This document shows positions 37,370-64,000 of a stretch of 64,000 bases of DNA, piece after piece. A model generated the notes under the pieces. That model saw nothing but the letters and a program-made list of their open reading frames with translations, made no database searches and was not told the origin of the DNA. The stretch's first letter is position 1. The number at the start of each line of letters is the position of its first letter. Made by a program: the position numbers and the translations under genes. Source of the stretch: Flavobacterium palustre (GTDB lineage: Bacteria > Bacteroidota > Bacteroidia > Flavobacteriales > Flavobacteriaceae); the NCBI RefSeq assembly GCF_014639535.1, contig NZ_BMGA01000007.1, positions 510 through 64,509 on the forward strand, written 5' to 3'.

Positions 37370-37372
37370 AAT

Positions 37373-44560: not shown

Positions 44561-44572
44561 AAAATAAAATTT

Positions 44573-44630
44573 TACCACAGATTTGCAGATTTAATTTTAT
44601 AATCTGTGAATCTGCGGTATTTTTTTTAAG
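44573..44630 (+). terminator. Terminator of the LacI gene
   Basis: The arms TACCACAGATTTGCAGATT and AATCTGTGAATCTGCGGTA pair with a few mismatches and are followed by a T tract. Confidence 0.8.
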
Positions 44631-44663
44631 TCTAAAATGAAATAAACTCCCATTTGAAACCAA

Positions 44664-44705
44664 TAAAAAAAGGGAGGCGTTTTAAAAAAACAACCTCCCT
44701 TTTTA
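44664..44705 (-). terminator. Terminator of the kdu/uxa operon
   Basis: AAAAAAGGGAGG / CCTCCCTTTTT arms with a 16-nt loop lie 28 bp after the uxaA stop, with T residues on the minus strand. Confidence 0.85.
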
Positions 44706-44732
44706 ACTAAAAACAAAATCTAAAAACAATCT

Positions 44733-46349: not shown

Positions 46350-46375
46350 CTTACTAACTTGATTTTTTTTATTTC

Positions 46376-47830: not shown

Positions 47831-47849
47831 AATTGCTTCTATTATTTTT

Positions 47850-48521
47850 TTATTTTTTACGTAAATCAGCAATAATTGCTATAGTTTCTTTTACTTTTTG
47901 AGCTAATCCGGCATAATCTTTACTTTGTAAAACGGAAGCCGAAATTAACTGAGAACCAATTCCAACACAGTAAGCTCCTGCATCAAACCATGATTTCAAA
48001 TTATCTCTCTCGGTAGAAACTCCTCCTGTAGGCATGATGTTTGTCCAAGGACAAGGTCCTTTAACCCCTTTTATAAATTGTGGCCCGTAGATTTCTCCAG
48101 GGAACAATTTAACAATCTCACATCCTAATTCTTCAGCTCTGGCAATTTCGCTCAAAGTACCACAACCAGGAGACCACAACACTTTTCTACGGTTACAAGC
48201 TATAGCAATATCTTCTCTAAATACAGGAGTAACAATAAAGTTAGCACCTAATTGCATATACAATGAAGCAGCAGCGGCATCAGTTACCGAACCAACTCCC
48301 ATGATCATTCCAGGTAATTCTTTGATAGCATATTTTGTCAATTCAGCAAAAACTTCGTGAGCGAAATCTCCTCTGGCAGTAAACTCCATCAAACGGGCAC
48401 CACCATCGTAACAAGCTTTCAACACATTCTTACTTAATTCCAGATCATTACTAAAAAACAAAGGAATCATCCCTGTTTCTTTCATTGCAGTTGCAACTTC
48501 TATACGTGTAAATTGAGCCAT
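47850..48521 (-). CDS. eda: 2-keto-3-deoxy-6-phosphogluconate aldolase
   Basis: Eda splits KDPG into pyruvate and glyceraldehyde 3-phosphate, the last step of this pathway. The 223-residue class I aldolase shows the catalytic Glu in LMEFTARGDFAHE, GVGSVTDAAAASLYMQLGAN, and the Schiff-base Lys in AEELGCEIVKLFPGEIYGPQ, followed by MPTGGVS for phosphate binding. Most KDPG aldolases have IVTPVF and KLFPA-type motifs; both are seen here (NFIVTPVFRED). It sits between kdgK (11 bp) and uxaB (19 bp). Confidence 0.96.
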   Translation of the reverse strand: MAQFTRIEVATAMKETGMIPLFFSNDLELSKNVLKACYDGGARLMEFTARGDFAHEVFAELTKYAIKELPGMIMGVGSVTDAAAASLYMQLGANFIVTPVFREDIAIACNRRKVLWSPGCGTLSEIARAEELGCEIVKLFPGEIYGPQFIKGVKGPCPWTNIMPTGGVSTERDNLKSWFDAGAYCVGIGSQLISASVLQSKDYAGLAQKVKETIAIIADLRKK

Positions 48522-48532
48522 TTTATCTTTTT

Positions 48533-49555
48533 TTATCTTGAAACTTTACCTGTGAAATCTCCATCAAGTAATTTTTCAATTTCATTTTTAGTAATTAAAT
48601 TATAATCTCCATAGATGGTGTGTTTTAAACAACAAGCAGCAACCGCAAAGTTCAAAGCTCTTTGTTTATCCAATGGTTCTTCGTTTAAACCATAGATTAA
48701 ACCTCCCATAAAAGCATCACCACTACCTACTCTGTCCACAACCGGAGTAACCTCCTGAACAGCAGCTTTAAACACTTCTTTTCCATCATAAAGGATTCCT
48801 CCAATACGTTGGTGAGAAGCACTTACAGAATAACGTAAAGTAGTTGACATGTATTTTAATTCAGGACAAAGTTTGAACACTTCATTATACAAAGCAGGCA
48901 ATGTATGAACTTCCTGGTAATCAGGATCAACCTTATCTAAACCTAACATAAAGTTAGCAGTATCTATGTCACCTAAGATAATATTACTGTACTTTAACAT
49001 TTCCGGCATCACATCCTTTGGTTGTTTCCCATAATTCCAAAGTTTTGAACGGTAATTCAAATCGGTAGAAATAGTCAAACCTAATTCGTGAGCTACTTTA
49101 ATAGCCTCAAAACAAGCTTCGGCTGCTGTTTCAGAAAGAGCCGGAGTAATTCCGCTCCAGTGAAACCAGGTTGCATCCTTTAAAATTTCTTTCCAGTCAA
49201 ATTCTCCTTTTTTCAAAGTGGACATTGAACTGTTAGCTCTATCGTAAATTACATTACTTGCACGTGTACTGGTTCCTGTTTCAAGGAAATAAATCCCTAA
49301 ACGATCCCCACCTTTCATTACATTTTGACAATCTACATCCAGTTTGCGCATTTCGTGAATAGCACAATTCCCTAATTCATTATTAGGTACTTTAGTAACA
49401 AATTCTGCCTTCATCCCGTAATTTACAAGCGAAACAGCAACATTAAATTCTCCTCCACCATAGGTCGCTTTATACGATTCGGCCTGAGCAAATCTCAAGT
49501 GTCTGTCAGTAGATAAACGCAGTAGAATTTCTCCAAAAGTGACTACTTTTTTCAT
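48533..49555 (-). CDS. kdgK: 2-keto-3-deoxygluconate kinase
   Basis: KdgK phosphorylates KDG to KDPG, where the Kdu and Uxa branches meet. The 340-residue PfkB/ribokinase-family protein has an N-terminal GGGEFNVAVSLVNYGMKAEF and the C-terminal signature VDRVGSGDAFMGGLIYGL, whose Asp is the catalytic base. The length fits KdgK. A 112-bp gap separates it from uxaC and holds a sequence very similar to the MFS-gene promoter with an altered operator (49583-49625), so part of its expression may be independent of the upstream genes. Confidence 0.94.
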   Translation of the reverse strand: MKKVVTFGEILLRLSTDRHLRFAQAESYKATYGGGEFNVAVSLVNYGMKAEFVTKVPNNELGNCAIHEMRKLDVDCQNVMKGGDRLGIYFLETGTSTRASNVIYDRANSSMSTLKKGEFDWKEILKDATWFHWSGITPALSETAAEACFEAIKVAHELGLTISTDLNYRSKLWNYGKQPKDVMPEMLKYSNIILGDIDTANFMLGLDKVDPDYQEVHTLPALYNEVFKLCPELKYMSTTLRYSVSASHQRIGGILYDGKEVFKAAVQEVTPVVDRVGSGDAFMGGLIYGLNEEPLDKQRALNFAVAACCLKHTIYGDYNLITKNEIEKLLDGDFTGKVSR

Positions 49556-49582
49556 ATGTAGTTAATATTTTTTTTCAAAGAA

Positions 49583-49625
49583 GATGTAATCGCCATTCTC
49601 CATTTATATTCTTAATAATTGAATC
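49583..49625 (-). promoter_or_regulatory. Diverged copy of the MFS promoter-operator before kdgK
   Basis: ATTCTTAATAATTGAATC at 49608-49625 matches 17 of 18 bases of 54515-54532 in the MFS promoter, and the operator half TGTAATCG (49585-49592) is kept at nearly the same spacing. The other operator half and the -7 box are changed (ATAAATGG instead of TATATTTG). An ATCGCCAT / ATGGCGAT pair also spans it. Confidence 0.6.
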
Positions 49626-49667
49626 ATGGCGATATCAAATGAAAATTTTTTATAAATTATACTTTAA

Positions 49668-51077
49668 TTATTTAACCGGAAATTTGAAATATTCCTTAGC
49701 ATTACCATAGCTAATATCAGAAACCATTTTTCCAATCCATTCCATTTCAGAAGCAGGTAATTCACCTCTTTTGATTTCGTCTCCTAAAAGGTTACAAAGA
49801 ATACGACGGAAATATTCGTGTCTTGGGAAAGACAAGAAACTTCTTGAATCAGTCAACATTCCCACAAAACAGCTAATCAAACTCATATTAGAAAGAGCGT
49901 TTAATTGTTTTGTCATTCCATCTTTTTGATCTAAGAACCACCATCCTGAACCAAATTGCACTTTTCCTCTAACACTTCCGTCATTAAAGTTACCAATCAT
50001 GGTAGCCATAACTTCGTTGTCAGCAGGATTCAGGTTGTAAATAATAGTTTTAGTCAATTTATCTTTACTATCCAATGCATTTAAGAATGCTGATAATTTT
50101 TGAGCTTGTGGATAATCTCCAATAGAATCCCATCCTGTATCAGGTCCTAAAATACGGTGCATACGCGCATTATTATTTCTCAAAGCTCCTAAGTGAAATT
50201 GTTGAACCCATCCAAATTCATGGTAAGTTTCACATAAAAATACTAAAATAGCACTTTGGAATTTCAAAGCTTCTTCGTTGCTGATAGCCTGGTTTTCTCT
50301 TTTCTTTTTGAAAATAGCAACCACTTCGCTTTCAGTATAATTTTCGAAATAAATTTGGTCTAATCCGTGGTCACAAAGTTGGCAACCATTTGCATTAAAA
50401 TACTCAATTCTGTTTCTTAAAGCCGCTTGTAAATCAGCGTAAGTATTAATAGAAATCGAAGCTTTTTGTCCTAAAACATCAAGATATTCGTTGTATCCGT
50501 CATTAGCAATTAAGATCGCTTTATCAGGTCTGAAAGCTGTACTTACAGTAGTTTTGAAATCGCTTTTAGCTAATTGCTCATGAAAATCCAAACTATCGAT
50601 AGGATCTTCAGTAGTACATACTAATTCAGCATTTACTTTACGCAACAAGTTTCTTGTGCTGTATTCAGCAGAATTTACTTTAGCAGAAGTCTCTTCGTAG
50701 ATTCTTTCAGCTGATTTTTCGTTTAATAAATCAGTAATATCAAAATAACGAGCCAACTCTAAGTGAGTCCAGTGGTACAATGGATTACGCATTGTATAAG
50801 GAACTGTTTTTGCCCAGTTTAAAAATTTATCTTTATCAGAACCATTACCTGTTACAAATTGTTCGTTGATACCTAAAGTACGCATCGCTCTCCATTTGTA
50901 GTGATCTCCTTTAATCCAAACATCAGTAATATTACTAAAGATTTTATCTTCGGCAATAAACTGAGGATTCAGGTGATTGTGGTAATCAATAATCGGTTGG
51001 TTCTTAGAATAATTATGATATAATTCTTCTGCGAATTTATTTTCTAATAAAAAGTTATCGTTGATAAAAGTGCTCAT
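49668..51077 (-). CDS. uxaC: Uronate isomerase (glucuronate/galacturonate isomerase)
   Basis: UxaC converts D-galacturonate to D-tagaturonate and D-glucuronate to D-fructuronate. The 469-residue amidohydrolase-fold protein has the metal-binding YHNHLNPQFIAED, the uronate-binding region LVCTTEDPIDSLDFHEQL, the conserved HLGALRNNNARMHRILGPDTGWDSI and the C-terminal TDSRSFLSFPRHEYFRRILC. All are landmarks of the family. It can take galacturonate from pectin and also glucuronate, which matters because a GH115 alpha-glucuronidase lies 10 kb away. No UxuA/UxuB pair for fructuronate is seen in the window. Confidence 0.97.
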   Translation of the reverse strand: MSTFINDNFLLENKFAEELYHNYSKNQPIIDYHNHLNPQFIAEDKIFSNITDVWIKGDHYKWRAMRTLGINEQFVTGNGSDKDKFLNWAKTVPYTMRNPLYHWTHLELARYFDITDLLNEKSAERIYEETSAKVNSAEYSTRNLLRKVNAELVCTTEDPIDSLDFHEQLAKSDFKTTVSTAFRPDKAILIANDGYNEYLDVLGQKASISINTYADLQAALRNRIEYFNANGCQLCDHGLDQIYFENYTESEVVAIFKKKRENQAISNEEALKFQSAILVFLCETYHEFGWVQQFHLGALRNNNARMHRILGPDTGWDSIGDYPQAQKLSAFLNALDSKDKLTKTIIYNLNPADNEVMATMIGNFNDGSVRGKVQFGSGWWFLDQKDGMTKQLNALSNMSLISCFVGMLTDSRSFLSFPRHEYFRRILCNLLGDEIKRGELPASEMEWIGKMVSDISYGNAKEYFKFPVK

Positions 51078-51095
51078 TATAATTTTCTTAAAATA

Positions 51096-51887
51096 TTAAT
51101 CTTCATTTGATGGTTTACCAATGGTAGCCAAAATTCCACCATCAACATATAAAATGTGACCGTTTACAAAATCACTCGCTTTAGATGACAAAAAGATTGC
51201 CGCTCCTGCTAAATCACCCGGATCACCCCATTTAGCAGCCGGTGTTCTGCTAATGATAAAATCGTTAAACGGATGTCCGTCAACACGAATTGGTTTTGTT
51301 TGTTCCGTAGCAAAATATCCAGGTCCGATTCCGTTGATTTGAACATTATATTTAGCCCATTCTGTAGCCATGTTTTTAGTCAACATTTTCAAACCACCTT
51401 TTGCAGCAGCATAAGCAGAAACGGTATTTCTACCTAATTCACTCATCATAGAGCAAATGTTGATGATTTTTCCAGCTCTTCTTTCAATCATTCCTTTAGC
51501 AACATGCTTAGAAACAATAAACGGACTTACTAAATCAATATCAATTACTTCTCTAAAATCAGCAACTTCCATCTCTAACAATGGAATTCTTTTGATAATT
51601 CCGGCGTTATTGATTAGAATATCGATAGGTCCAACTTCATTTTCAATTTTTGCAACAGCAGCTTTTACTTGCTCCTCTTCTGTTACATTAAATTTATAAC
51701 CAACAGCATTGATTCCTTCGCTTTTTAATTCGGCTACAGCAGCATCAATTTTTTCCTGAGAAGAATTTCCATTAACAACAATAGTTGCTCCCGCCTGACC
51801 TAATCCTTTAGCCATTGCCATACCCAGTCCGTGAGTACTTCCTGTGATAAGTGCAACTTTTCCTTGTATATCAAATAAATTTGTCAT
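51096..51887 (-). CDS. kduD: 2-dehydro-3-deoxy-gluconate 5-dehydrogenase (DKI/KDG reductase)
   Basis: KduD reduces 2,5-diketo-3-deoxygluconate to KDG, completing the branch for unsaturated galacturonate. The 263-residue short-chain dehydrogenase has the cofactor motif TGSTHGLGMAMAKG, NNAGI, the catalytic Ser in INICSMMSELG, YAAAKGG with catalytic Tyr and Lys, and GPGYFATEQT, which distinguishes KduD from general FabG-like enzymes. It starts 4 bp after the kduI stop and uxaC follows 18 bp later. Confidence 0.95.
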   Translation of the reverse strand: MTNLFDIQGKVALITGSTHGLGMAMAKGLGQAGATIVVNGNSSQEKIDAAVAELKSEGINAVGYKFNVTEEEQVKAAVAKIENEVGPIDILINNAGIIKRIPLLEMEVADFREVIDIDLVSPFIVSKHVAKGMIERRAGKIINICSMMSELGRNTVSAYAAAKGGLKMLTKNMATEWAKYNVQINGIGPGYFATEQTKPIRVDGHPFNDFIISRTPAAKWGDPGDLAGAAIFLSSKASDFVNGHILYVDGGILATIGKPSNED

Positions 51888-51891
51888 TTTT

Positions 51892-52731
51892 TTATCTTAA
51901 ATCAGTGATTTTACAAACATCCATATCTCCGTAATCTAAGTTTTCACCTGCCATACCCCAGATAAAAGTATAATTAGATGTTCCTGACCCAGAGTGGATA
52001 GACCAAGGTGGCGAAATAACTGCCTGATGATTGTTCATCCAGATATGTCTTGTTTCTTGTGGCTCACCCATAAAGTGACATACCGCCTGATTTTCAGGAA
52101 TATCTAAGTAAAAATAAACCTCCATACGACGATCGTGAACGTGAGCTGGCATCGTATTCCAAACACTTCCCGGTTTTAACTCAGTCATCCCCATTTGCAA
52201 TTGGCAAGTAGTAACTACACTTCCAATAATCATTTGGTTTACTGTACGATGATTAGCCGTTTCCATTGTACCCAAATGTAATTTATTAGCTTCAGCTAAA
52301 CTAACTTTCACAGTAGGATAAGTCGTGTGAGCCGGAGCAGAATTGATATAAAATTTAGCCGGGTTTTTAGCATCAGCACTTTTGAATATTACTTCTTTAT
52401 TTCCTGCTCCAATATATAAAGCATCTTTAAAACCTAACTCATAAGTTTCTCCTTCAACCACAACAGAACCATTACCTCCAACATTAATGATTCCTAACTC
52501 TCTTCTCTCTAAAAAATAAGGCGCTTTAAGCGGATCAATGGTTTCAAGAGGCAACTCTTTATTTACAGGAACTGCAGAACCTGCAATATAACGGTCGTAG
52601 TGTGAATAAACCAACACTACTTCGTCTTCCTGCATTAAATCATCGATTAAGAATTCTTCTCTTAATTGTTTTGTATCGTATTTTTTTACTGTCTGAGGGC
52701 TGGAAGCGTAACGTGAACTATATTTTGTCAT
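51892..52731 (-). CDS. kduI: 5-keto-4-deoxyuronate isomerase
   Basis: KduI isomerises 5-keto-4-deoxyuronate, the spontaneous product of unsaturated galacturonate released by GH105 enzymes, to 2,5-diketo-3-deoxygluconate. The 279-residue bicupin shows the zinc site [20 protein letters not shown] and the segment [22 protein letters not shown]. The last motif and length are diagnostic for KduI. It is the first gene of the seven-gene operon, and its promoter carries a LacI-type operator. Confidence 0.97.
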
Positions 52732-52748
52732 AATTATTTTGTGTTTAG

Positions 52749-52768
52749 TGTAATCGATTACAAAGGTA
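52749..52768 (-). promoter_or_regulatory. LacI-type operator and -7 box of the kdu/uxa operon
   Basis: The perfect palindrome TGTAATCGATTACA (52749-52762) overlaps by two bases the minus-strand -7 box TACCTTTG (52768-52761). The predicted transcript start lies inside the operator. The kduI ATG is 18 bp downstream of the operator edge. Confidence 0.85.
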
Positions 52769-52827
52769 TAAATTTAATTTATTTTACATCTATATTTATG
52801 AAAACAACTTATCCATAAAAAGTTAAA

Positions 52828-52867
52828 AAAAGAAAAAACTCTCTTGTAATAACACAAGAGAGTTTTA
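52828..52867 (-). terminator. Terminator of the MFS transporter gene
   Basis: AAAACTCTCTTGT / ACAAGAGAGTTTT arms with a 6-nt loop and a T-rich minus-strand tail lie 8 bp after the stop. They separate the transporter from kduI. Confidence 0.9.
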
Positions 52868-52874
52868 ACAAATT

Positions 52875-54320
52875 TTACAAATCAGTTATTGGAGCATATT
52901 TTGGCACTAATGATTTCATTACCGTCCAACCTATCAGATAGCAAACTGCACATATAGAAAAGATAATAAAGTAACCTGCTTCAATACCTTTAAAGCCCAT
53001 AAAAGCCATTTCAGTCTCTTTAGTATAATCAAATAAAACTCCGGAACCTTTATTAATTAAAGTTGATCCCAAACCTCCTGCTAAACCACCAATACCTGTA
53101 ATGGTAGCAATTGCTTTTTTAGGAAACATATCTCCCACAGTAGTAAAAATATTAGCTGACCAGGCCTGGTGAGCCGCCCCTGCAATACCAATGATAATTA
53201 CAGGCAACCAATACGAAATATACCCTAAAGGCTGAGCAACCAAAGCCAACAATGGAAAAAATGCAAAAATCAACATCGCTTTCATCCTTCCTTCATAAGG
53301 ATTCATTCCTTTTTTCTCTACGAAATAAGTTGGCAACCAACCTCCAATGATTGACAATAAAGTAATCATATACAATACAAATAATGGAAAAGCAGCTTCA
53401 GTAGAATCCATATCATAAACAGAACTCAAATAAGCAGGTGTCCAGAACAAGAAAAACCACCACACACCATCAGTCATAAATTTACCAAAAGCAAAAGCCC
53501 AGGTTTGTTTGTATTTAAAACAAGCAGCAAGAGATACTTTATCCGTATTTTCAGGAACATAGCCTTCAATTTTACTATCAGCCAAAACATCTTGTTGTAT
53601 ATATTCTAATTCTGCAGCATTAACTTTTGAATGTCTTTCCGGTTTGTCGTACATGAACATCCAAAATCCCATCCATACAAAACCTAAAGCACCAATAATA
53701 ATAAATGACATTTCCCATCCAAAAGACTTAGCAATAAACGGAATTGTAATTGGTGCAGCCAATGCTCCTACTGTTGCTCCTGCATTAAAAATACTGGTAG
53801 CAAAAGCACGGTCTTTCTTAGGAAAATATTCAGCAGTAGTTTTAATTGCAGCAGGAAAGTTCCCCGCTTCTCCAACCGCCAAAACAAAACGGGCAAAAAT
53901 AAACAAAGTCACACTTACATTGATAACCAAAGCGGTATCACTGATTGTTTCAATAACTTCCTTAGCACCACCAAAACCAACAAACCAATTCCCTGTAATA
54001 ATCCCAGAAGTTGCAATTCCGGCAAAAGCGTGCAAACAAGCTCCTACAGACCAAACTCCAATTGCCCAAAGAAAACCTTTTTTAGTATCCATCCAGTCGA
54101 TAAATCTTCCGGCAAACAATAAAGAAACTGCATAAAAAATGGAGAACAAAGCGGTAATGTTACCGTAATCGTTATTTGTCCAATGAAATTCCGGAGCTAT
54201 AAAATCACTCCAAGTTAAAGAAAGAACCTGTCTGTCTAAGTAATTTATAGTTGTTGCAAAAAACAATAACGAACATATTGTCCAGCGATAGTTTCCAACA
54301 GCTTTGTTTGTTTGGTTCAT
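52875..54320 (-). CDS. exuT: MFS hexuronate transporter (ExuT type)
   Basis: This inner-membrane secondary transporter probably carries galacturonate or glucuronate into the cytoplasm. From the ATG at 54320 it has 481 residues; the frame extends to an upstream TTG at 54326 that is not needed. About twelve hydrophobic segments are seen, with the anion:cation-symporter-type N-terminus INYLDRQVLSLTW, RFVLAVGEAGNFPAAIKTTAEYFPKKDR, and NAGATVGALAAPI. An insertion of about 45 residues after TM6 and PTYFVEKKGMN in the second half are normal for ExuT-like proteins in Bacteroidota. It is a single-gene unit with its own operator-bearing promoter. Confidence 0.92.
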   Translation of the reverse strand: MNQTNKAVGNYRWTICSLLFFATTINYLDRQVLSLTWSDFIAPEFHWTNNDYGNITALFSIFYAVSLLFAGRFIDWMDTKKGFLWAIGVWSVGACLHAFAGIATSGIITGNWFVGFGGAKEVIETISDTALVINVSVTLFIFARFVLAVGEAGNFPAAIKTTAEYFPKKDRAFATSIFNAGATVGALAAPITIPFIAKSFGWEMSFIIIGALGFVWMGFWMFMYDKPERHSKVNAAELEYIQQDVLADSKIEGYVPENTDKVSLAACFKYKQTWAFAFGKFMTDGVWWFFLFWTPAYLSSVYDMDSTEAAFPLFVLYMITLLSIIGGWLPTYFVEKKGMNPYEGRMKAMLIFAFFPLLALVAQPLGYISYWLPVIIIGIAGAAHQAWSANIFTTVGDMFPKKAIATITGIGGLAGGLGSTLINKGSGVLFDYTKETEMAFMGFKGIEAGYFIIFSICAVCYLIGWTVMKSLVPKYAPITDL

Positions 54321-54326
54321 AATCAA

Positions 54327-54762: not shown

Positions 54763-57700
54763 TCACTTAATCAATCGGCTTGGAGAATATCCAAACTGCT
54801 TTTTAAAACATCTGCTAAAATACAACGGATCATTAAACCCTACTTTATCAGCCACTTCCGAAACATTATTCACTTTTAATTTTAACAATTGCGCCGCTTT
54901 TTTCAAACGAACAGTTCGTATAAATTCATTAGGGGACAAATCGGTCAATTGCTTAATTTTTCGATACAATTTAGACGAACTCATCCCTAATTCGGCACAC
55001 AGGAAGTTAGCCGTCAATTCGGGGTCGCTGATGTTTTGTTCAATCAAATCGGTAATATTCGAAATCAAATCGATATCTAATTGCGAATGTGTCAATGTAG
55101 AAACATCACTCTCTATTTCACCTGAGAATTTTTGTTTTAACTCTGTGCGGGTTCTGATAATATTGTCTATTCGGGTTTTTAATAAGGATGGCTCAAATGG
55201 TTTGACCATATATTCATCCACACCTAAATTATACCCTTTAATTTTATTTTCGTTTTCGGATAAAGCAGTTAACATTATAAGTGCAGTATGACTAATATCA
55301 TCGTCATTTTTTAAAGCTTCAACAAATTGAAATCCTCCCATAACAGGCATCATGGCATCGACCACACAAAGTGCCGGTTTTATTTTTCTACAAAGATTCA
55401 AACCTTCATCCCCATTTTCGGCCTGATATACCCGATAAAATTCCGATAAATATTGGACAATAAAAAAGCGCAATTCGGCATTGTCTTCAATAACTAAAAC
55501 CGATTGTTTCAGTTCTGTGCTTTGATTGCCTTTCTTTATTTTATCAGGCGATTCATAAGCAACTTCAGCTTCTTTGTATTCAATATCAAAAACTTCGCTC
55601 TTTTTATAACTGCTTTTAGAAACTGGTAATTCCACAGTAAAAACACTTCCCTCCAAAGGAGCACTTTTTAATTTTAATTGTCCCCGATGCACTTCAACCA
55701 GTGAAATTACCAATGATAATCCGATACCCGAACCGGTATTATTCTTTTTACTGCTTTTTACCTGATAAAATCTTGAAAAAATCTTCTTCTGGCTTTCCAG
55801 CGGAATACCTATTCCATTATCACTCACCTCAACAACCAATATTTTTTCTCCCTCTTTTTCTTTTGTACCAATAAACAAATCTACCGTACCATAATTATTG
55901 GTAAATTTCAAGGCATTGGAAAGTAAATTGTACAGTATTTTATGGTATTTATCCACATCAATCCAGGCTTCGAGACTTTCAAGTTCACAGTTAAAATTAA
56001 AATTAATCTCCTTTTCCTGAGCTAATTGTGTAAAGGAATCAAAAACAGTTTGCGTATTAGCTACGAGTTCCGTTTTAGATACTTTTAATTTTAATTCTCC
56101 GGATTGTGCTTTTCTAAAATCTAAAATCTGATTCACCAATAACAACAATCGGCTGGCATTTTTATAAATCAAATGAAGCTTCGTTTTATCATAATCTGAT
56201 ACTTCGTTTTGTTCCAGTAATTGTTTGGCAGGACCTAAAATCAATGTCAACGGAGTCCTTAACTCATGAGAAATATTGGTAAAAAACTGTAGTTTTTCGT
56301 TTGACAAACGTTCATCACTATCTCGCCTTACTCTTTCTAATAAAAGTGCCTGTCTTAGTTTAAGTCGGGATTTAATTTCTTTTCTGATATAATAAGCTGA
56401 TACCGAAAACACTAAAACTAACAACAGAAAAATCTTGGTATTAGTCCAAAAAGGAGATAAGATTGTAATGTTATAAGCTGCTGTTTTACTTCGGATTCCG
56501 TCACTATTACTGGCTCTGATTTTAAAGGTATATTCGCCCGGATTAAGGTTAGTATATTGAATCGTTCTGGCATCGCTGGAAGTTGTAATCCAGTTTTTAT
56601 CAAAACCTTCCAGCATGTACTCAAAACTGTTCAGTCTTTCATTAGTATAAGAAGGTGCCGAAAACTGAATGGAAAAATTACGATTATCATAATTAAGTTC
56701 CACCTGCTTATGGATATTAATATCTTTTGTAAACGGAATTTGTCCGTTAATTTCCAGTCCGGGGAAGACCTCTTCATTTTGAACTTTAAATTCAGTTATG
56801 ATAGGTGCCGGCGCTATTTTATTCTCTTTGATTTTATCTGCCGAAAAATAAATAATACCATTTTTTCCACCTAAAAAAATAGTTGAATTATTCAAACTAT
56901 AAAATCCTTTAGAACTAAATACGTCTAATCTGTTGCCGCTGTCAACATAATAAATATTTATTTTCTTCGATTTTTTCTTATATCTGGCAATACTATTATT
57001 ATTGATATTCAACCACAGATAACCATCATTATCCATTTCTAAATCGGTAATCCATTTTCCTTGAAGTTCCCGAGGTTCTACAACCGGAACAAAATTATCT
57101 TTTTTAACATTATAAAGACCAATACCTTTGACCGTGGCAATCCAGATATCACCATTAACGTCTATCAGAATATCACTCACATGATTAGCCGGCAAACCAA
57201 TGTTCTCCTGTTCTCCTTTGACATAAAGTTTCAGTTTTCGGGTCTTTAAATTATACCTTGCGACCCCGGTTTCGGTGGCAAACCACAAATTTTTAAAACG
57301 ATCTGATTTAATCTTATTAATTTGAAAATCGGGTAACAAAACTCCTTTAGGAACTTTAATTTGCAAAGTTTTTGCATCTAAAATCACAACTCCTTCACCA
57401 AATGAACCTACCACTAAAGTATTTTCATCTGCTGTTAAAAAAGAAATTAGAGGAGAGTTTTTCACCCCAATATCAACCAATCTGGAACTATTGGACTGAT
57501 AATTATAAACCAATATTTTGCCATCCCACAAACCACAGTAAAAAAGCTTTCCATCATGAGAATAAATACTGGCAATATCATTTCTGTTATTGTACAATGG
57601 AACAAATGACTTTTCTTTGGAAACAAAAAGTCCGTTGTATCTTGTGGCAACAATTACCTTTCCGTCATAAGTTTTAGCAAATCCTCTTATACTGGGCTTT

Positions 57701-58791
57701 TGGTTATCATTATACAATGAAATATCCTTATTGATTTTAAACTGATCGCCATAAGGATCATACTTATCTAAACCATCCTCTGTCCCAATCCATAAAACAC
57801 CCGATTTATCAAAATATAAGGAATTCACAATATTCCCAACCAAAGAGTTATCATCAGTCAGTTTAGAAAAATACCGCTGAAACTTACCCGTTGCTACATC
57901 TTCTAATTGGTTACAAACCAAAAGTCCTCCTAAGGTTCCTAACCAATATTTCCCATCGGGAGCCTGAGCTATGGAAATAAAATAAGGTCCTAATTTATTC
58001 CTTAAAACCGCATCTTTAATATAGAGGTTCTCAAATGTATTTTTTGACTTGTTTAACTGATAAAGTCCTTCTCTGGTTCCCACAAAAATATCCGACTTAA
58101 CATCTTCATAAATGAAATTGATATAAGGATTTTTTTGATTCGAATTTGGAATTGATAAACTGTAAGTGGTTACTTTTAAAATCTCTCCCTTGGCTCCCAG
58201 AATAATTTTAGCTACCGAACCTTTGCCAAAACTTCCTACCCAAATATTCCCTTTTTTATCCTGAAAAATTTCTTTGACATATTCAAATCCCTTGATATTT
58301 ATTTTAGAAAACCGTTGTTCTTTAGGGTAAAAAATAGAAAGTCCCTTACTCATTGTACCTACCCAAACTCTTTTAAACTTATCTACATGAACAGCACGTA
58401 TTTCGTCTTCAGGCAAACTATTAGGATTGTTTTTATCATGAAAAAAAGTACTAAAAACATGGGTATCCATTCGATAAAGAGTAAGTCCTTTTCGGGTTCC
58501 TATCCATAAATTATGAGAGGCTTCATCGAGTTCTAATGCAGTAATATCATCATTATAGAGTTTATTCTTCCCTAATTCCGAACTCATATAAGCCTTAAAC
58601 TGATAGCCGTCAAAACGGTTCAACCCAAAAAAAGTCCCCAACCAAATGAAACCATTCTTATCCTGAACAATATGCCTTACCGAATTATAGGAAAGTCCGT
58701 TGCTCTCATTATAATGTTCAAATTTTATATGCTGTCCCAAAACAGGGAGACAAATAAAAAGAATGGAAACTACACCTAATTTAAGTTTCAT
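54763..58791 (-). CDS. Hybrid two-component system sensor/regulator (HTCS)
   Basis: One 1342-residue protein joins sensor, kinase and DNA-binding regulator. From N- to C-terminus: signal peptide (about 1-20), two-component beta-propeller repeats (about 20-680, e.g. LWIGTRKGLTLY, KDGKYWLGTLGG-like), Y_Y_Y domain (about 690-775), transmembrane helix (about 782-802), HisKA with phospho-His near 841 in FFTNISHELRTPLTL, HATPase (DNGIGIPLESQ; SGIGLSLVISLV), receiver with Asp near 1143 in LCVVDAMMPVMGG, and C-terminal AraC helix-turn-helix (KVGFNDPLYFSRCFKKQFGY). The start at ATG 58791 is preferred over a TTG at 58812. It lies 24 bp after the phosphoesterase gene, so it is probably co-transcribed with GH115 rather than with the pectin genes. 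Confidence 0.95.
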   Translation of the reverse strand: MKLKLGVVSILFICLPVLGQHIKFEHYNESNGLSYNSVRHIVQDKNGFIWLGTFFGLNRFDGYQFKAYMSSELGKNKLYNDDITALELDEASHNLWIGTRKGLTLYRMDTHVFSTFFHDKNNPNSLPEDEIRAVHVDKFKRVWVGTMSKGLSIFYPKEQRFSKINIKGFEYVKEIFQDKKGNIWVGSFGKGSVAKIILGAKGEILKVTTYSLSIPNSNQKNPYINFIYEDVKSDIFVGTREGLYQLNKSKNTFENLYIKDAVLRNKLGPYFISIAQAPDGKYWLGTLGGLLVCNQLEDVATGKFQRYFSKLTDDNSLVGNIVNSLYFDKSGVLWIGTEDGLDKYDPYGDQFKINKDISLYNDNQKPSIRGFAKTYDGKVIVATRYNGLFVSKEKSFVPLYNNRNDIASIYSHDGKLFYCGLWDGKILVYNYQSNSSRLVDIGVKNSPLISFLTADENTLVVGSFGEGVVILDAKTLQIKVPKGVLLPDFQINKIKSDRFKNLWFATETGVARYNLKTRKLKLYVKGEQENIGLPANHVSDILIDVNGDIWIATVKGIGLYNVKKDNFVPVVEPRELQGKWITDLEMDNDGYLWLNINNNSIARYKKKSKKINIYYVDSGNRLDVFSSKGFYSLNNSTIFLGGKNGIIYFSADKIKENKIAPAPIITEFKVQNEEVFPGLEINGQIPFTKDINIHKQVELNYDNRNFSIQFSAPSYTNERLNSFEYMLEGFDKNWITTSSDARTIQYTNLNPGEYTFKIRASNSDGIRSKTAAYNITILSPFWTNTKIFLLLVLVFSVSAYYIRKEIKSRLKLRQALLLERVRRDSDERLSNEKLQFFTNISHELRTPLTLILGPAKQLLEQNEVSDYDKTKLHLIYKNASRLLLLVNQILDFRKAQSGELKLKVSKTELVANTQTVFDSFTQLAQEKEINFNFNCELESLEAWIDVDKYHKILYNLLSNALKFTNNYGTVDLFIGTKEKEGEKILVVEVSDNGIGIPLESQKKIFSRFYQVKSSKKNNTGSGIGLSLVISLVEVHRGQLKLKSAPLEGSVFTVELPVSKSSYKKSEVFDIEYKEAEVAYESPDKIKKGNQSTELKQSVLVIEDNAELRFFIVQYLSEFYRVYQAENGDEGLNLCRKIKPALCVVDAMMPVMGGFQFVEALKNDDDISHTALIMLTALSENENKIKGYNLGVDEYMVKPFEPSLLKTRIDNIIRTRTELKQKFSGEIESDVSTLTHSQLDIDLISNITDLIEQNISDPELTANFLCAELGMSSSKLYRKIKQLTDLSPNEFIRTVRLKKAAQLLKLKVNNVSEVADKVGFNDPLYFSRCFKKQFGYSPSRLIK

Positions 58792-58815
58792 AGAAAAATT
58801 AGTTTTGGGCAAAAT

Positions 58816-60651
58816 TTAGTTCTGAATGGTATTTCTTCTCAAATTTATAATAAATTTATCGGATGGAGCCCCATTTAGAAAACTTTTAAAAATAGAGCAA
58901 AATTCATAAAATGAAATTTCACCAGCAGTAGGTTTTTCGTTTTTTTTGTAATAATCAGTATATGAATTGATAATCATTTTATACTGCTGAATTCGGTCTT
59001 TGCCAATGTCTTTCAATGCCAGTTCATCAGCTGAATACATTCGATGAAAATCAAAAATCATATCAAAACCGGTCCAGTTTTCATTCTTATATTTTTCTAT
59101 TTTCGAATGATTTACTTTGGCAAAAACGAATAGATTCTGTGCTTTAGCTTTTAGCATAAAGTCTTTAAATTCCTCTGGCCAATCCTTTTTAAGAAATCGG
59201 GTACGGACTAATTCTTTTAAATGCCAATTGGTGAATTCATGATAATTTTTAGATTCTAAAACACCTTTATCCCAAATATCGGGACTACCCATACTTTTTA
59301 AATAAGCATATTCCTGTTCGTATAAAGGAAATAATGTTTTGAAATTGGGAACTGAATCAATCGTAACCGTTTCGATTTGCATCTTATTTTTATTTTGAAT
59401 TGTCAGGATTTTATATCCCGGAATATAAGCCGCTAATGATGGAATTTGAATATTGAACAAGGTTTTTCCGTTTTCGTATTTTCTAATTCCGGTATCATTC
59501 ATGTGCATGTGTCCGGCAAAATGAAGCTGTACTCCGGCTTCTGCAAAAATTCTCGATACATCTTCAGTTGGAACTCTGTGCAATTGCATTTTATCTTCTC
59601 CAAATAACTTCTTCATCGTCTCTGAAGCATCATCATTAAATTCTACCATTGGATAATGACTAAAAGCGATCAGCGTTTTTCCTTTTTGCTTCGCTTCCTC
59701 AACTAGTTTTTTTGCCCAATTAATTAAATGTTTTTTATGAGTTAAAACCTGGTTGTACCCCACACCCGGACTATTGTAATTTAATGGATTTTCAGGATGC
59801 GTTTTAGCTGCTTCTTTTGGTACATAAACATTGCCATCAATAGCTAATAACCAAACATTATTCTGGGTTTCTATCAAATAACTTAAATCAGGAATTTGAT
59901 TATTATAAGGCGGAATGGCATACGTTCTTTTTTCGAGAGTTGATTGTTCTAAAGCTTTTTCGAAAGAATAATTATCATAATTATAAGTTGTAAACGGAGT
60001 TTCCCAATATAAATCAGTCTTTTGAGGAAAAAAACCAAAATCGCCCAATTCGTTTAAAACTTCGGCGTAACCCATGGTACCAATATCTTTTGTAATCACA
60101 ACAGGAAGTTCATCTGATTTTTTAGGAAGATACATTCCTTTTTTACTGATAATTACTTGCTCTTTCCCTCCTTCTCCAAGAAAATCTGTTTTTCCGGCAT
60201 CCATCAAATAAGGTTTGGCAACATCATGATTTCCTGTGGTAATTATAAATTGGATTCCATGTTTTTCAGAATATAAATTCAGAATCTTTTTTAATCCCCG
60301 AATGTTTATTGGCTGACCATCATCACTAAAATCTCCGGGTAAGACTACGGTTTTTATATTTCTCTTAACCACATCATCGAGAGCTGCCAGAAACGCAAAG
60401 TAATTTTCATTGAATAATCTTGTTGATTCCAGCTGAGATTTCATTGTTCGCAACAAAGTATATTTCCCATCAGCCGGATTTCGAATTCCTTTGTAATCAG
60501 AATCTGAAAATCCTCCATACAAATCAAGCAAATGAACATCAGACAAGAATGCAATTGGTGTACTTTTAACTGTATTTTTCTTGGCAGAAGAGCAAGAAAC
60601 AACAGCAAAAACAATAATTAAACACCCAATTACTTTCTTACAATAATTCAT
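58816..60651 (-). CDS. Periplasmic calcineurin-like metallophosphoesterase lipoprotein
   Basis: The 611-residue protein has lipobox VVSCSSAKK; lysines rather than acidic residues follow, so it probably stays in the periplasm. The two-metal phosphoesterase motifs are all present: LSDVHLLD (about 36), LPGDFSDDGQP (about 100), TTGNHDVAK (about 142), SHYPMVEF (about 335) and FAGHMHMNDTG (about 375). A C-terminal part of about 200 residues (LFPLYEQEYAYLKSMGSP...) has no motif I recognise. The substrate is unknown; its place between GH115 and a PI-PLC-like gene suggests a phosphorylated sugar or inositol. It starts 21 bp after GH115. Confidence 0.9.
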   Translation of the reverse strand: MNYCKKVIGCLIIVFAVVSCSSAKKNTVKSTPIAFLSDVHLLDLYGGFSDSDYKGIRNPADGKYTLLRTMKSQLESTRLFNENYFAFLAALDDVVKRNIKTVVLPGDFSDDGQPINIRGLKKILNLYSEKHGIQFIITTGNHDVAKPYLMDAGKTDFLGEGGKEQVIISKKGMYLPKKSDELPVVITKDIGTMGYAEVLNELGDFGFFPQKTDLYWETPFTTYNYDNYSFEKALEQSTLEKRTYAIPPYNNQIPDLSYLIETQNNVWLLAIDGNVYVPKEAAKTHPENPLNYNSPGVGYNQVLTHKKHLINWAKKLVEEAKQKGKTLIAFSHYPMVEFNDDASETMKKLFGEDKMQLHRVPTEDVSRIFAEAGVQLHFAGHMHMNDTGIRKYENGKTLFNIQIPSLAAYIPGYKILTIQNKNKMQIETVTIDSVPNFKTLFPLYEQEYAYLKSMGSPDIWDKGVLESKNYHEFTNWHLKELVRTRFLKKDWPEEFKDFMLKAKAQNLFVFAKVNHSKIEKYKNENWTGFDMIFDFHRMYSADELALKDIGKDRIQQYKMIINSYTDYYKKNEKPTAGEISFYEFCSIFKSFLNGAPSDKFIINLRRNTIQN

Positions 60652-60672: not shown

Positions 60673-63636
60673 TTACATCTTCGTTTCCGGTGGAAAAGCA
60701 TAGGAATCTTTCCAGCCTCCTAAATCAATCAAAATTTGGTCAATCATCACTCCCGGATCGACCATCCAAACTTTCAAAGTGTGCTTTCCAGCCTTATTTA
60801 CAATTTGTTTCGCCGATTTTACAGCAGCATTTTTTAATGTGTTTTGCAACCATTCATCACTGCGCCCAAAAGTCTGAAAATCTAAAATCACAGGATCAGC
60901 ATCATCAATCGCTACAGCACATCTTACTCCTTTTCCTTCATAAAAAGCATGCGTTGGAATCGCCTGCACTTTTACATTGGCCTGACCAAAGTTAAAACTA
61001 TAAAAATCATATTCCATTACCGGGCTGTTACTTTTTATTAATTTTAAATCTACTTCCGAATTGGCTGTTCGAGGCAAAGCCACACTCACTTTTCCGGCAT
61101 AACCAATGCCTTCAAAAGTCTCCCATTTGGCTGCTATACCCTCTTTTCTATTTGAATAATTTACTGCATTGATCGAAACATAACCTTTGTCTTCTATAAA
61201 ACCTTTGTAATTTTCCAAATTAGCAAATTTCGGATTAAAAGCACTCACTCCAATAGTGATTAAAGTATCTTGACTAACAAATTCTAATGCCGAATTCACC
61301 TTATAACTTGGCGGAATTAATTGGTAATCGTGCCCTAATGGCGCTTCTTTTTTGTTTTCTCCCTGCGGAACTTTACTCCAGTCAATACTCACCCAAAGAC
61401 GTTGCTGACTGTTTTCTTTATTATCTAAAGTTCCTTGCTGTTGCGAAATTTTAATCCAATCGGCTTTTGGTTTAGCCTGCCAATTTACCGTTCCCTCACC
61501 TTTCATATAAACATCAATATAATACTGATTCTTCACATAAGCATTAAAAACCGGCAGCACATCAGCATAGGAATTCTCGGTTCTGTGATTGACTTCCATT
61601 TCATAACTTTCTAACGCTAATTTTAATTCTGGCTTCTTTCCTGCAACAGCATTCGTTGACGTAGCCTGATCAAAAACGGGCAAAAAGCGTGGCGACATAC
61701 TCATGATATGCTTCCACTTCCCACCAGCCAATCCGTTATTAAAATATTGGGTTTCTTTTTGAATTCTTTCAAAAGCTGCTGCTGATTTCTTCGCAAAAAA
61801 TGCAGCACTTCCACGACCTTGTTCGGCAACAAATTTATTTTTATACGAATACAACCATTTATGATTTAAACTGGCTGCGCCAATAACTGGATATTCAACC
61901 AATTCGTAAAAAGCATCTTGACGATTCGCCGGAATAGCCGTTTTTAATTTTTCTACAGCATCCATTAATTTTTGGTAAGCATCTATTCTTTTAGAAACCT
62001 CATCACCATAATGGATTTGGGTTAGTGCAGTTGGTTTTGATTTCGTTTCCGGTTCTACCTGATTCCAAGCCATAAACTCAGGACGACGCTGAAAAGCCAA
62101 GTGATAATAATCAAAAAACAAATCAGTTATCGAATTAGCGTTTTGTGTTCCAAATTCTCTCGAAGCCCAGTATTGCATATGCGTTTTTACACTTTGACTT
62201 TTATCAAAAGGGTTCATATTCCAAGCCATATCCAGAAATAATTCGATATTGTATTCATGCGGCTTGATGTCGCCACAATTCAAAATCCATAAATCACGGG
62301 ATTGAAATTCATAGGCTTTGGTCATTTCTTCCCACATCAAAACCGGATTGGTTGAATTCAACCACAAATAATCATGCGGACGTCCCCAATATGAAGTATG
62401 ATAATAAATTCCCGCTCCTCCGGCACGCGTTTGTTCTTTCGGATTACTCAACTGACGAATGTATCCATAATTATCATCCGTCCACACCAGTTGGGCATCA
62501 TCTGGTAGTTTCAGACCTTTTTGGTAATAATCCAAAACCTCTTTATAAGGAATAAATGCCTGCGGAATTTTGTTCGGTTCTTTACCAATTTCTTTTTTCA
62601 AAATAGCTCTTTGATCAGTAATTACCTGTTCTAATAATTTTACCTGAGAATCCGAATCATCTTCGCCCACAATCATTGGAGAATCATGCTCGCCACGCAT
62701 TCCAACCGTGTAAATATTTTCAAAAGGAGCTGTTTCTTTGGCTCTTTTTCTGAAAAAATCTTTAATCACACCTGAATTGGTATCATAACGGTATTCGCCC
62801 ATTGTTTTATGATTCCATTCGGCATTAATGTTACTCAACATCGGTTCAGCGTGCGAAGTTCCAACCACAATGGCATAATCATCGGCAACTTGTTTGTTTT
62901 TTGGAAACGAATAAAAAGCCTTGGTGCTTTTGTGCATGGCTGGCCAAATAGTATTGGCTCTTAAACGCAACAACAATTCAAAAACTTTGGCATAGGTTTT
63001 AGAACCGATATCGCCCGTTTCCGGTTCGAAAGTTTTAGCTGCCCAGGGCTGCAATCCCCAATCTTCATCGTTTAGAAAAATTCCTCTGTATTTCACCGAT
63101 GGTGAACCATAAGTTTGTGTTTGAATATTTAAAACTAAATCCGTTTTTTTGTCTGGCGTAACATCAGCCCACCATTCCCAAGGCGAAACGCCAATCATTC
63201 TTGAAATTTCCAGCAATCCATAAGCCGTTGCTCTTCTGTCAGAACCTACAATAACCAATGCTTTTTTGATGGCTGCTGTTGGATTTTCAATGACTTGAAT
63301 TTTATACGTTTCCCATTTTCCTTTTACATCAGTAATCGAAATTTTTTGTTTCGAAACCAAATTATCAATCCATTTACTTTGGCCAATAGTTCCAGCCATA
63401 ATGGTTATTTCAGCATTATTTTTCGAAACATTTAATCGCTGATTAATAATCGAAAAAACATCATCAGCCAAAATTTTAGCCGCAATATGAACCACTTTGG
63501 GTTCTTTGTCTTCTACTAAAATGCCTGCTTTTTGTTTTTCGGAAACAATGGTAAAATCATTGTTTTGCGCCTTTGTTGCATTAGCAAAAAGAACAATAAA
63601 AACTATGAAAACACTATTAAACTTATTTTTGAACAT
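60673..63636 (-). CDS. GH115 alpha-1,2-glucuronidase-family protein
   Basis: GH115 enzymes release alpha-linked glucuronic or 4-O-methylglucuronic acid; known members act on xylan. From ATG 63636 (MFKNKFNSVFIVFIVLF) the protein has 987 residues and a signal peptide ending TKAQ. The frame extends to a TTG at 63675 that would overlap the upstream gene. Recognisable segments are VIVGSDRRATAYGLLEISR, GVSPWEWWADVTP, KYRGIFLNDEDWGLQPWA, LRANTIWPAMH, TVGMRGEHDSPM and WTDDNYGYIRQLS. The C-terminal beta-sandwich domain (about 760-985) ends in MVDPGVMIDQILIDLGG. No xylanase or other xylan gene is in the window, so a non-xylan substrate should be considered. Confidence 0.95.
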   Translation of the reverse strand: MFKNKFNSVFIVFIVLFANATKAQNNDFTIVSEKQKAGILVEDKEPKVVHIAAKILADDVFSIINQRLNVSKNNAEITIMAGTIGQSKWIDNLVSKQKISITDVKGKWETYKIQVIENPTAAIKKALVIVGSDRRATAYGLLEISRMIGVSPWEWWADVTPDKKTDLVLNIQTQTYGSPSVKYRGIFLNDEDWGLQPWAAKTFEPETGDIGSKTYAKVFELLLRLRANTIWPAMHKSTKAFYSFPKNKQVADDYAIVVGTSHAEPMLSNINAEWNHKTMGEYRYDTNSGVIKDFFRKRAKETAPFENIYTVGMRGEHDSPMIVGEDDSDSQVKLLEQVITDQRAILKKEIGKEPNKIPQAFIPYKEVLDYYQKGLKLPDDAQLVWTDDNYGYIRQLSNPKEQTRAGGAGIYYHTSYWGRPHDYLWLNSTNPVLMWEEMTKAYEFQSRDLWILNCGDIKPHEYNIELFLDMAWNMNPFDKSQSVKTHMQYWASREFGTQNANSITDLFFDYYHLAFQRRPEFMAWNQVEPETKSKPTALTQIHYGDEVSKRIDAYQKLMDAVEKLKTAIPANRQDAFYELVEYPVIGAASLNHKWLYSYKNKFVAEQGRGSAAFFAKKSAAAFERIQKETQYFNNGLAGGKWKHIMSMSPRFLPVFDQATSTNAVAGKKPELKLALESYEMEVNHRTENSYADVLPVFNAYVKNQYYIDVYMKGEGTVNWQAKPKADWIKISQQQGTLDNKENSQQRLWVSIDWSKVPQGENKKEAPLGHDYQLIPPSYKVNSALEFVSQDTLITIGVSAFNPKFANLENYKGFIEDKGYVSINAVNYSNRKEGIAAKWETFEGIGYAGKVSVALPRTANSEVDLKLIKSNSPVMEYDFYSFNFGQANVKVQAIPTHAFYEGKGVRCAVAIDDADPVILDFQTFGRSDEWLQNTLKNAAVKSAKQIVNKAGKHTLKVWMVDPGVMIDQILIDLGGWKDSYAFPPETKM

Positions 63637-63640
63637 GATT

Positions 63641-64000
63641 TTATTTTTTAATTCTTTCGAAACGGTTATTCTCAAAACTCACCTTATAAGATGATTTAAA
63701 AAGCGTGGACGGAATGTAATAATCTGTTGAAATCACTTGTGCTCCCGATGCTTTTGCTTTTTCAAACTTAGTATAATCATTCGCTCTGGCTTCGGTTGTT
63801 CCATCGTCGGCGCGGGTGCGAACCATATAACCTTTGGCTACTAATTCTTTGATATATTTAAAATTTTTAATCGGGTCATTGATTACTCTAAAAGCAGCCT
63901 CAGGATTTCCTTCTTTGCTGTTTACAAACAATACCCTGTTTTTCAAACTGAAATATCCTTCAAGATAGCGATTAATTTTAGTTTGATTTTCATCCAAAAC
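63641..64000 (-). CDS. C-terminal part of a Ca2+-dependent phosphoinositide phospholipase C-like protein
   Basis: The frame is open to the right edge; only about 119 codons are visible and the start is outside the window. The segment NPEAAFRVINDPIKNFKYIK, then KGYMVRTRADDGTTEARAND and KASGAQVISTDYYIPS, matches the C-terminal end of PI-PLC-C1-type proteins such as the Ca2+-dependent enzyme of Streptomyces antibioticus, as I know it. The family cleaves the phosphodiester between inositol phosphate and a lipid. The stop lies 4 bp before the GH115 ATG, indicating one transcript. The catalytic His residues of this family lie in the missing part. Confidence 0.75.
   Translation of the reverse strand, partial: VLDENQTKINRYLEGYFSLKNRVLFVNSKEGNPEAAFRVINDPIKNFKYIKELVAKGYMVRTRADDGTTEARANDYTKFEKAKASGAQVISTDYYIPSTLFKSSYKVSFENNRFERIKK

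What the first reader, a model, noticed from the sequence alone, without database searches (positions are those of the whole stretch)
60673..64000. PI-PLC-like, GH115 alpha-glucuronidase and phosphoesterase unit: possible plant sphingolipid (GIPC) head-group degradation
Seen: a PI-PLC-C1-like gene, a GH115 gene 4 bp later, a periplasmic metallophosphoesterase 21 bp later and an HTCS regulator 24 bp after that. Known: GH115 removes alpha-1,2-linked glucuronic acid and is normally found with xylan genes; plant glycosylinositol phosphorylceramides carry alpha-linked glucuronic acid on inositol phosphate. Inference: PI-PLC releases the glycosyl-inositol phosphate from ceramide, GH115 removes glucuronate, and the phosphatase frees inositol. 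The glucuronate could enter via UxaC nearby. No xylan gene is present in the window. Plant cell-surface lipids would be met together with pectin, which would explain the linkage.
Basis: partly seen in the sequence, partly recalled or inferred. Interest (0 to 1): 0.78.

Follow-up and report, generated by a model that had tools for sequence, protein, structure and literature searches.

The report
Bacterial locus for eating plant sphingolipids
A Flavobacterium carries what looks like a gene kit for taking apart the sugar-inositol heads of major plant membrane sphingolipids, including a likely new type of sugar-cutting enzyme; none of it has been tested in the laboratory.

Summary
Beyond the edge the four genes end a 14-gene minus-strand run: SusC, SusD, GH92, a lyase-like gene (working name HepL), DUF4861, GH28, GH92, GH43, GH89, NagX-like, PI-PLC, GH115, phosphoesterase, HTCS. 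Facing it are myo-inositol oxygenase (MIOX), a symporter, NagB-like and mannonate-oxidoreductase genes. This fits the head group Man or GlcN(Ac)-a1,4-GlcA-a1,2-Ins-P-ceramide. No GH10 xylanase lies on the contig; the GH115 groups with BtGH115A, away from xylan enzymes; PI-PLC keeps both histidines. HepL's model folds like uronate lyases; MIOX lies within 8.1 kb of it in 17 of 32 named loci. Against: GH115 and PI-PLC are each missing from 6 of 14 readable Flavobacterium loci; 10 of 19 HepL genomes searched have no such PI-PLC; nothing was assayed; GlcA on inositol O-2 should block classical PI-PLC chemistry; GH28 and DUF4861 are unexplained. GPI anchors remain a rival. Confidence 0.68, interest 0.8.

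The parts
63641..64000 (-). C-terminal third of the PI-PLC (PF16670, 356 aa, hydrophobic signal-like N-terminus; gene continues to 64711 in continued numbering)
   Evidence: both catalytic-type histidines kept
60673..63675 (-). GH115 alpha-glucuronidase, non-xylan branch (likely ATG start about 63636)
58816..60651 (-). Metallophosphoesterase with lipoprotein-like N-terminus (by eye); predicted inositol-phosphate phosphatase, possibly a phosphodiesterase
   Evidence: metal-site type residues D38, H40, D107, N141, H142, H332, H381, H383 invariant in 25 rows
54763..58812 (-). Hybrid two-component (HTCS) regulator of the locus
   Evidence: homologue next to the phosphoesterase in 7 of 7 relatives
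52875..54326 (-). MFS transporter next to the locus, perhaps for uronates
   Evidence: 2A0114, below its cut-off; kept beside the locus in 7 of 7 relatives
51892..52731 (-). KduI, 5-dehydro-4-deoxy-D-glucuronate isomerase (would fit an unsaturated uronate from a lyase; also serves pectin)
   Evidence: PRK00924 over cut-off; next to the locus in 6 of 7 relatives
51096..51887 (-). Gluconate 5-dehydrogenase / KduD-like SDR
   Evidence: PRK07097 over cut-off
49668..51077 (-). UxaC, glucuronate isomerase: entry point of D-glucuronate
   Evidence: PRK02925 over cut-off; next to the locus in 5 of 7 relatives

Best explanation
The four genes are the far end of a polysaccharide-utilisation-type locus whose substrate is the head group of plant glycosyl inositol phosphorylceramides (GIPC). 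Model, every enzymatic step inferred: SusC/SusD take up the head group; PI-PLC cuts it from ceramide; GH92 removes mannose; the NagX-like membrane protein acetylates glucosamine so that GH89 can remove it as GlcNAc; GH115 removes alpha-1,2-GlcA from inositol, or HepL eliminates the X-1,4-GlcA bond; the phosphoesterase frees inositol; the symporter imports it; MIOX oxidises it to a second D-glucuronate; UxaC and the mannonate-oxidoreductase-like SDR feed both glucuronates into central metabolism; the NagB-like protein handles glucosamine phosphate. HTCS senses an intermediate. Shown here: gene content, conservation, kept catalytic-type residues, GH115 branch, predicted fold of HepL.
For: Gene-to-bond match beyond the edge. 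Head-group structure in print: Man-a1,4-GlcA-a1,2-Ins (title in a reference list), GlcN/GlcNAc as alternative to Man (PMC12201980 passages; PMC9113257 passages), arabinose and galactose also found in the heads. The window's locus and seven other Flavobacterium loci share GH89, NagX-like, GH115, phosphoesterase and HTCS. HepL-MIOX association: 10 of 14 HepL genomes have MIOX against 19 of 381 others, Fisher p 7e-10, not corrected for ancestry; MIOX within 8.1 kb of HepL in 17 of 32 named loci, among them Runella, Ferruginibacter, Terrimonas, Pontibacter, Paraflavisolibacter and Salegentibacter. Salegentibacter lacus has HepL, DUF4861, GH88, phosphoesterase, MIOX, symporter, PI-PLC and GH43 together. 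The HepL model has the fold of uronate lyases, heparinase III first by Z though tied with others. GH115 in the non-xylan branch. PUL-type PI-PLCs form one clade, 100/97, apart from the sibling PI-PLC of the same genus.
Against: No activity or expression data. GH115 is absent from 6 of 14 readable related Flavobacterium loci and PI-PLC from 6 of 14. Of 19 HepL genomes searched, 10 have no PI-PLC of this family: F. panacis and the nine of Pontibacter, Ferruginibacter, Paraflavisolibacter, Spirosoma, Runella and Terrimonas. GlcA on inositol O-2 blocks the cyclic 1,2-phosphate route of classical PI-PLCs (recalled); the escape (O-6 attack, recalled for the Streptomyces enzyme) was not verified. GH88, expected after a lyase, lies near HepL in one locus only. 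The HepL profile did not match heparinase II/III significantly. The NagX-like protein is below its curated cut-offs. GH28 and DUF4861 have no obvious GIPC bond. No ceramide-degrading gene was identified or searched for. HepL in the Spirosoma-type loci has no MIOX on the stretch read.
Confidence: 0.68

Rival explanations
1. The locus takes apart GPI anchors of plant or other eukaryotic surface proteins: PI-PLC releases the anchor, GH92 trims its mannoses, NagX-like plus GH89 remove the glucosamine, the phosphatase and MIOX use the inositol.
For: Same inositol, mannose and glucosamine genes. Bacterial PI-PLCs cut GPI lipids (PMC5773145 passage, about the calcium-independent family). GH115 is missing in 6 of 14 related loci.
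Against: Leaves GH115 (8 of 14 loci), the uronate-lyase fold of HepL, GH88 near HepL in one locus and adjacent uronate genes unexplained. No protease or ethanolamine gene was looked for.
Confidence: 0.12
2. The substrate is an inositol-free uronic polysaccharide or arabinogalactan (heparosan-like, glucuronomannan, AGP) and the inositol and PI-PLC genes are an unrelated neighbour.
For: HepL fold, GH89 and NagX-like would fit GlcN(Ac)-a1,4-GlcA polymers. The nearest GH115 structure, BtGH115A, is reported on arabinogalactan (PMC9063842 passages). GH28 and GH43 are families common in pectin and arabinan loci (use recalled). Arabinogalactan-type galactanases were not searched for.
Against: HepL and MIOX recur together in several genera; PI-PLC, phosphoesterase and GHs share one strand with short gaps in the window's genome.
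Confidence: 0.12
3. The GH115 and its neighbours serve glucuronoxylan, as GH115 usually does.
For: Five of the six solved GH115 chains other than BtGH115A are or are taken to be xylan enzymes (names partly recalled); F. glycines carries a GH43 with a beta-xylosidase C-terminal domain in the locus.
Against: No GH10 on the contig, and two other GH115s of this genome sit beside GH10. Tree and loop motifs place this one outside the xylan branch.
Confidence: 0.03
4. Phosphorus scavenging from inositol phospholipids is the main role and the glycosidases are accessory.
For: PI-PLC with the same phosphoesterase family and SusC/SusD, without these GHs next to it, occurs in seven other loci of the genus.
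Against: Those PI-PLCs form a different clade; MIOX, NagB-like and uronate genes point to carbon use.
Confidence: 0.05

Closest known systems
Botrytis cinerea GIPC phospholipase C, BCIN07g04350 (PMC11496612; abstract, passages and section 10 read)
   Same: Secreted microbial enzyme releasing the glycosyl-inositol phosphate head from plant GIPC.
   Different: Fungal, chosen by its authors as a putative sphingomyelinase, single enzyme, no uptake or catabolic genes; this PI-PLC is of the PF16670 family.
BtGH115A of Bacteroides thetaiotaomicron (PDB 5by3)
   Same: Best PDB match of this GH115, same half of the tree, shares loop motifs NDEDWGL-PW and SYWGRPHD.
   Different: Separate clade; reported on arabinogalactan and not active on xylan-linked GlcA (PMC9063842 passages); its gene neighbourhood was not looked at.
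Heparinase III and other (alpha/alpha) toroid uronate lyases
   Different: 11% identity; no Pfam or NCBIfam match over cut-off; the profile match was not significant; linked to inositol genes.
HGSNAT and NAGLU steps of lysosomal heparan degradation (recalled)
   Same: Transmembrane N-acetylation of terminal glucosamine followed by a GH89 enzyme.
   Different: Bacterial locus with inositol genes; NagX-like protein below curated cut-offs.
Streptomyces (3h4w) and Pseudomonas (5fyo) PI-PLC; organisms recalled
   Same: The only PDB sequence matches with E below 0.01.
   Different: Weak, partial matches (about 30 bits); not known to me to act on GIPC.

Membership tests
Polysaccharide utilisation locus (SusC/SusD type) | SusC-SusD pair, co-directional carbohydrate enzymes, linked regulator | tested here: met
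   SusC and SusD Pfam matches, GH families and HTCS; all on the minus strand
GH115 | Pfam Glyco_hydro_115 over cut-off, with the Asp and Arg site residues discussed in PMC9063842 | tested here: met
   448.9 bits against 27; NDE and MRG..D motifs in 40 of 40 rows; matching the paper's residue numbers to these motifs is mine
Xylan-active GH115 subgroup | Groups with 4c90, 4zmh, 7pug and has NDEAP / MRGDGD / DYVG loop motifs | tested here: not met
   Opposite sides of a 100/100 branch; NDEDWG / MRGEHD / SYWGRPHD instead
Xylan utilisation locus | GH10 endo-xylanase near the GH115 | tested here: not met
   GH10 only on contigs C6 and C8; other xylanase families not searched
PI-PLC-C1 (PF16670) | Full-length profile match and two catalytic-type histidines | tested here: met
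   418.6 bits over positions 1-327 of 329; H38 and H129 in at least 97% of 39 rows, 37 of them different
GIPC-hydrolysing phospholipase | Activity on GIPC | not testable with these tools
   needs an enzyme assay
Uronate lyase of the heparinase III-like fold (HepL) | (alpha/alpha) toroid plus beta-sandwich fold shared with polysaccharide lyases | tested here: met
Heparinase II/III sequence family (PF16889) | Pfam match or significant profile match | tested here: not met
   no Pfam family over cut-off; hhalign probability 0.27% on shallow alignments
Myo-inositol oxygenase | PF05153 over cut-off and His/Asp di-iron ligands | tested here: met
   369.5 bits against 25; H111, H135, D136, H205, H228, D261 in at least 98% of 24 rows; ligand pattern recalled
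NagX glucosamine N-acetyltransferase | NCBIfam NF046061 cut-off of 480 bits | tested here: not met
   160.4 bits over positions 40-369 of 369; a works-like claim only

The most novel reading that the evidence does not exclude
Bacteroidota carry a dedicated, conserved catabolic system for plant sphingolipid head groups: a PUL aimed at a glycolipid rather than a polysaccharide, with a new lyase family (HepL) that splits the sugar-1,4-glucuronosyl-inositol core, a GH115 subgroup for GlcA-inositol, a PI-PLC able to act on 2-O-glycosylated inositol, and MIOX turning the inositol into a second glucuronate.
Probability: 0.5. Interest if true: 0.88.

Novelty: new variant of a known kind. Interest (0 to 1): 0.8.

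Why it matters
GIPCs are predominant glycosphingolipids of plant membranes, bind NLP toxins and bind sodium in salt sensing (abstracts). I found no paper on a bacterial GIPC utilisation locus in the open-licence library (three of these listed only the top of a longer list, and subscription journals are mostly not held). If true, it opens a new nutrient source for bacteria that meet plant matter, gives enzyme tools for plant sphingolipid analysis, assigns a substrate to one branch of the non-xylan GH115s, and predicts a new lyase family testable with one absorbance assay.

Tried and rejected
Xylan locus: rejected on GH10 location, tree and motifs. Pontibacter GH115 row 11, in the non-xylan half, has a GH10 on the same 34-kb stretch, nearer to a second GH115 that is in the xylan half. 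HepL by sequence: Pfam, NCBIfam, PDB profile and hhalign gave nothing significant; only the predicted fold answered. GH88 as regular partner of HepL: 1 locus only. HepL homologues on one Streptomyces and two Subdoligranulum records: no annotation, my ORF caller did badly on them, left out. PI-PLC reaction via O-6: looked for in print without success; stays recalled. DUF4861: no PDB match better than E 0.3. Phosphoesterase structure: never accepted by the busy machine. The GH115 scan of the phylum scored at most two candidates per genome, so its paralogue counts are lower bounds.

Rows left out: two short MAG contigs with this locus (L105, L108) and the non-Flavobacterium HepL loci are not in the 14-locus count. 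The GH115 tree holds 36 genes from stretches I chose by hand out plus four solved chains; genes under 600 aa and the solved chains 7pxq and 6nps are not in it. The HepL alignment has 29 rows: own, 25 of the 32 named loci and three unnamed. The HepL scan of named genomes used one protein and so finds close relatives only.
Full report
OBSERVATION. The window is contig C7:510-64509 of a 3.97-Mb genome in 36 contigs; its named near relatives are Flavobacterium, F. glycines being 92% identical over HepL. PI-PLC runs past the edge to 64711 in continued numbering.

BEYOND THE EDGE. In continued numbering, minus strand: NagX-like 64735-65877, GH89 65880-68114, GH43 68143-69129, GH92 69156-71450, GH28 71535-73112, DUF4861 73289-74137, HepL 74220-76013, GH92 76026-78401, SusD 78755-80374, SusC 80406-83420. 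With PI-PLC, GH115, phosphoesterase and HTCS that makes 14 genes. Plus strand: MIOX 84003-84884, sodium:solute symporter 84918-86498, NagB/PIG-L 86540-88468, SDR 88549-89361 (PRK08277 D-mannonate oxidoreductase, over cut-off). The NagX-like protein scores below both curated cut-offs. On the window side, MFS, KduI, a KduD/gluconate-dehydrogenase-like SDR, UxaC and a KDG-kinase-like gene follow HTCS (the MFS and kinase matches are below their cut-offs). In the seven relatives with this locus, MFS is found in 7, KduI in 6 and UxaC in 5 of the stretches read, some of which end there.

SUBSTRATE LOGIC. Papers give the head group as mannose or GlcN/GlcNAc on GlcA on inositol phosphate: Man-a1,4-GlcA-a1,2-myo-inositol is in a title in the reference list of PMC11496612; GMT1 adds Man and GINT1 adds GlcN/GlcNAc (PMC12201980 passages); arabinose, galactose, glucose and mannose were found in Hex-GIPC heads (PMC9113257 passages). 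Each core bond has a candidate enzyme in the locus: GH92 for Man; NagX-like plus GH89 for GlcN(Ac); GH115 for a1,2-GlcA; HepL as a lyase for the 1,4 bond to GlcA; PI-PLC; phosphoesterase; MIOX for inositol. GH28 and DUF4861 have none. Accessory enzymes differ between species: GH29 in F. glycines (Pfam) and by similarity in F. undicola, F. sufflavum and F. alvei; GH27-like in F. undicola; LacZ-type in G202 (Pfam) and by similarity in G021, G343, G324 and, more weakly, F. panacis. This would fit variable outer sugars.

CONSERVATION. A PI-PLC search of 395 phylum genomes hit 27. I classed 14 Flavobacterium loci that could be read far enough: the window's own and seven named species with a GH115 87-92% identical, plus six of a second type (unnamed G202, G021, G343, G324 of the same genus, F. 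panacis, F. alvei). The phosphoesterase and HTCS are present in 14 of 14. MIOX is present in 12 of 14; in F. undicola and F. alvei the stretch ends before its expected place. GH115 is present in 8 of 14 (first type only). PI-PLC is present in 8 of 14: 6 of 8 in the first type (absent in F. flevense and F. seoulense), 2 of 6 in the second (G202, F. alvei). GH89 is in 8 of 8 of the first type and in G202, G021, G343 and G324 of the second; the stretches of F. panacis and F. alvei do not show it. So the GH115/PI-PLC pair is not the core; SusCD, HepL, GH92, GH89, phosphoesterase, HTCS and MIOX are nearer to one. Searching 19 of the HepL genomes for PI-PLC found it in 9, none outside Flavobacterium except Salegentibacter.

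GH115. A 40-row tree splits by a 100/100 branch into 18 and 22 rows. The 18 hold the solved chains 4c90, 4zmh and 7pug (xylan enzymes; the identity of 4zmh is recalled) and 15 genes, 9 of which have a GH10 on the stretch read (own C6 and C8, G120, G170, G226, G249, G324, G391, Pontibacter row 2). The 22 hold BtGH115A and the eight PUL sequences, the eight as one 100/100 clade. Loop motifs differ in the same way while the NDE and MRG..D residues are kept in 40 of 40. Passages of PMC9063842 say BtGH115A does not act on xylan-linked GlcA and that its reported arabinogalactan activity is puzzling because GlcA there is beta-linked.

PI-PLC. Its only PDB sequence matches with E below 0.01 are 3h4w and 5fyo, both weak. 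H38, N39 and H129 are kept in at least 97% of 39 rows. PUL copies form a clade (10 rows, 8 different, 100/97) separate from the sibling PI-PLC that sits with phosphoesterase and SusCD in seven other loci of the genus. Chemistry: GlcA occupies O-2 of inositol, the nucleophile of classical PI-PLCs (recalled). So either GH115, or HepL plus a hydrolase, acts first, or the enzyme uses O-6; I recall a trans-1,6-cyclic product for the Streptomyces enzyme but could not check it. A fungal sphingomyelinase-like enzyme does cut intact series A GIPC (PMC11496612, section 10), so the phosphoesterase could also be the lipid-cutting enzyme; not tested.

LITERATURE. Eight searches of the open-licence library showed no bacterial GIPC utilisation locus. 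Lists were complete for (0 papers; 13; 13; 4; 7) and partial for (25 of 117; 12 of 260; 12 of 10,574). I read listings and the passages and sections cited, no whole paper.

VERDICT. Main doubt: no enzyme has been assayed, and GPI anchors or an inositol-free glycan cannot be excluded.

Noticed in passing
L053-L060, L061, L064-L065, L070-L071 (G025, G174, G316, G206, G202 second copy, G021, G324): A compact PI-PLC + phosphoesterase + SusC/SusD unit with two small genes of 307 and 174-195 aa recurs in seven loci of the genus; looks like a phospholipid-scavenging system.
   Followed up: partly
L185 and L186: HepL homologues at 26-33% identity occur on a Streptomyces chartreusis linear plasmid and two Subdoligranulum records, so the family reaches beyond Bacteroidota.
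   Followed up: partly
L160 and L162: GH88- and DUF4861-like genes lie a few genes from GH115 genes related to BtGH115A in two genomes of the genus, suggesting DUF4861 works with unsaturated uronate products.
   Followed up: no
G395:C4:182027-184027 (F. glycines): Another GH115-like gene reads with one in-frame stop.
   Followed up: no
G000:C10:93382-94410: The window's genome has one ordinary heparinase II/III-family gene elsewhere, separate from HepL.
   Followed up: no
window 13639-13845: Two tRNA-Thr genes with the same anticodon lie in tandem.
   Followed up: no
window 35330-54326: A pectate lyase, a galacturonidase-like gene (below cut-off), tagaturonate reductase and uronate genes form what looks like a pectin locus directly beside the GIPC-type locus.
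   Followed up: partly
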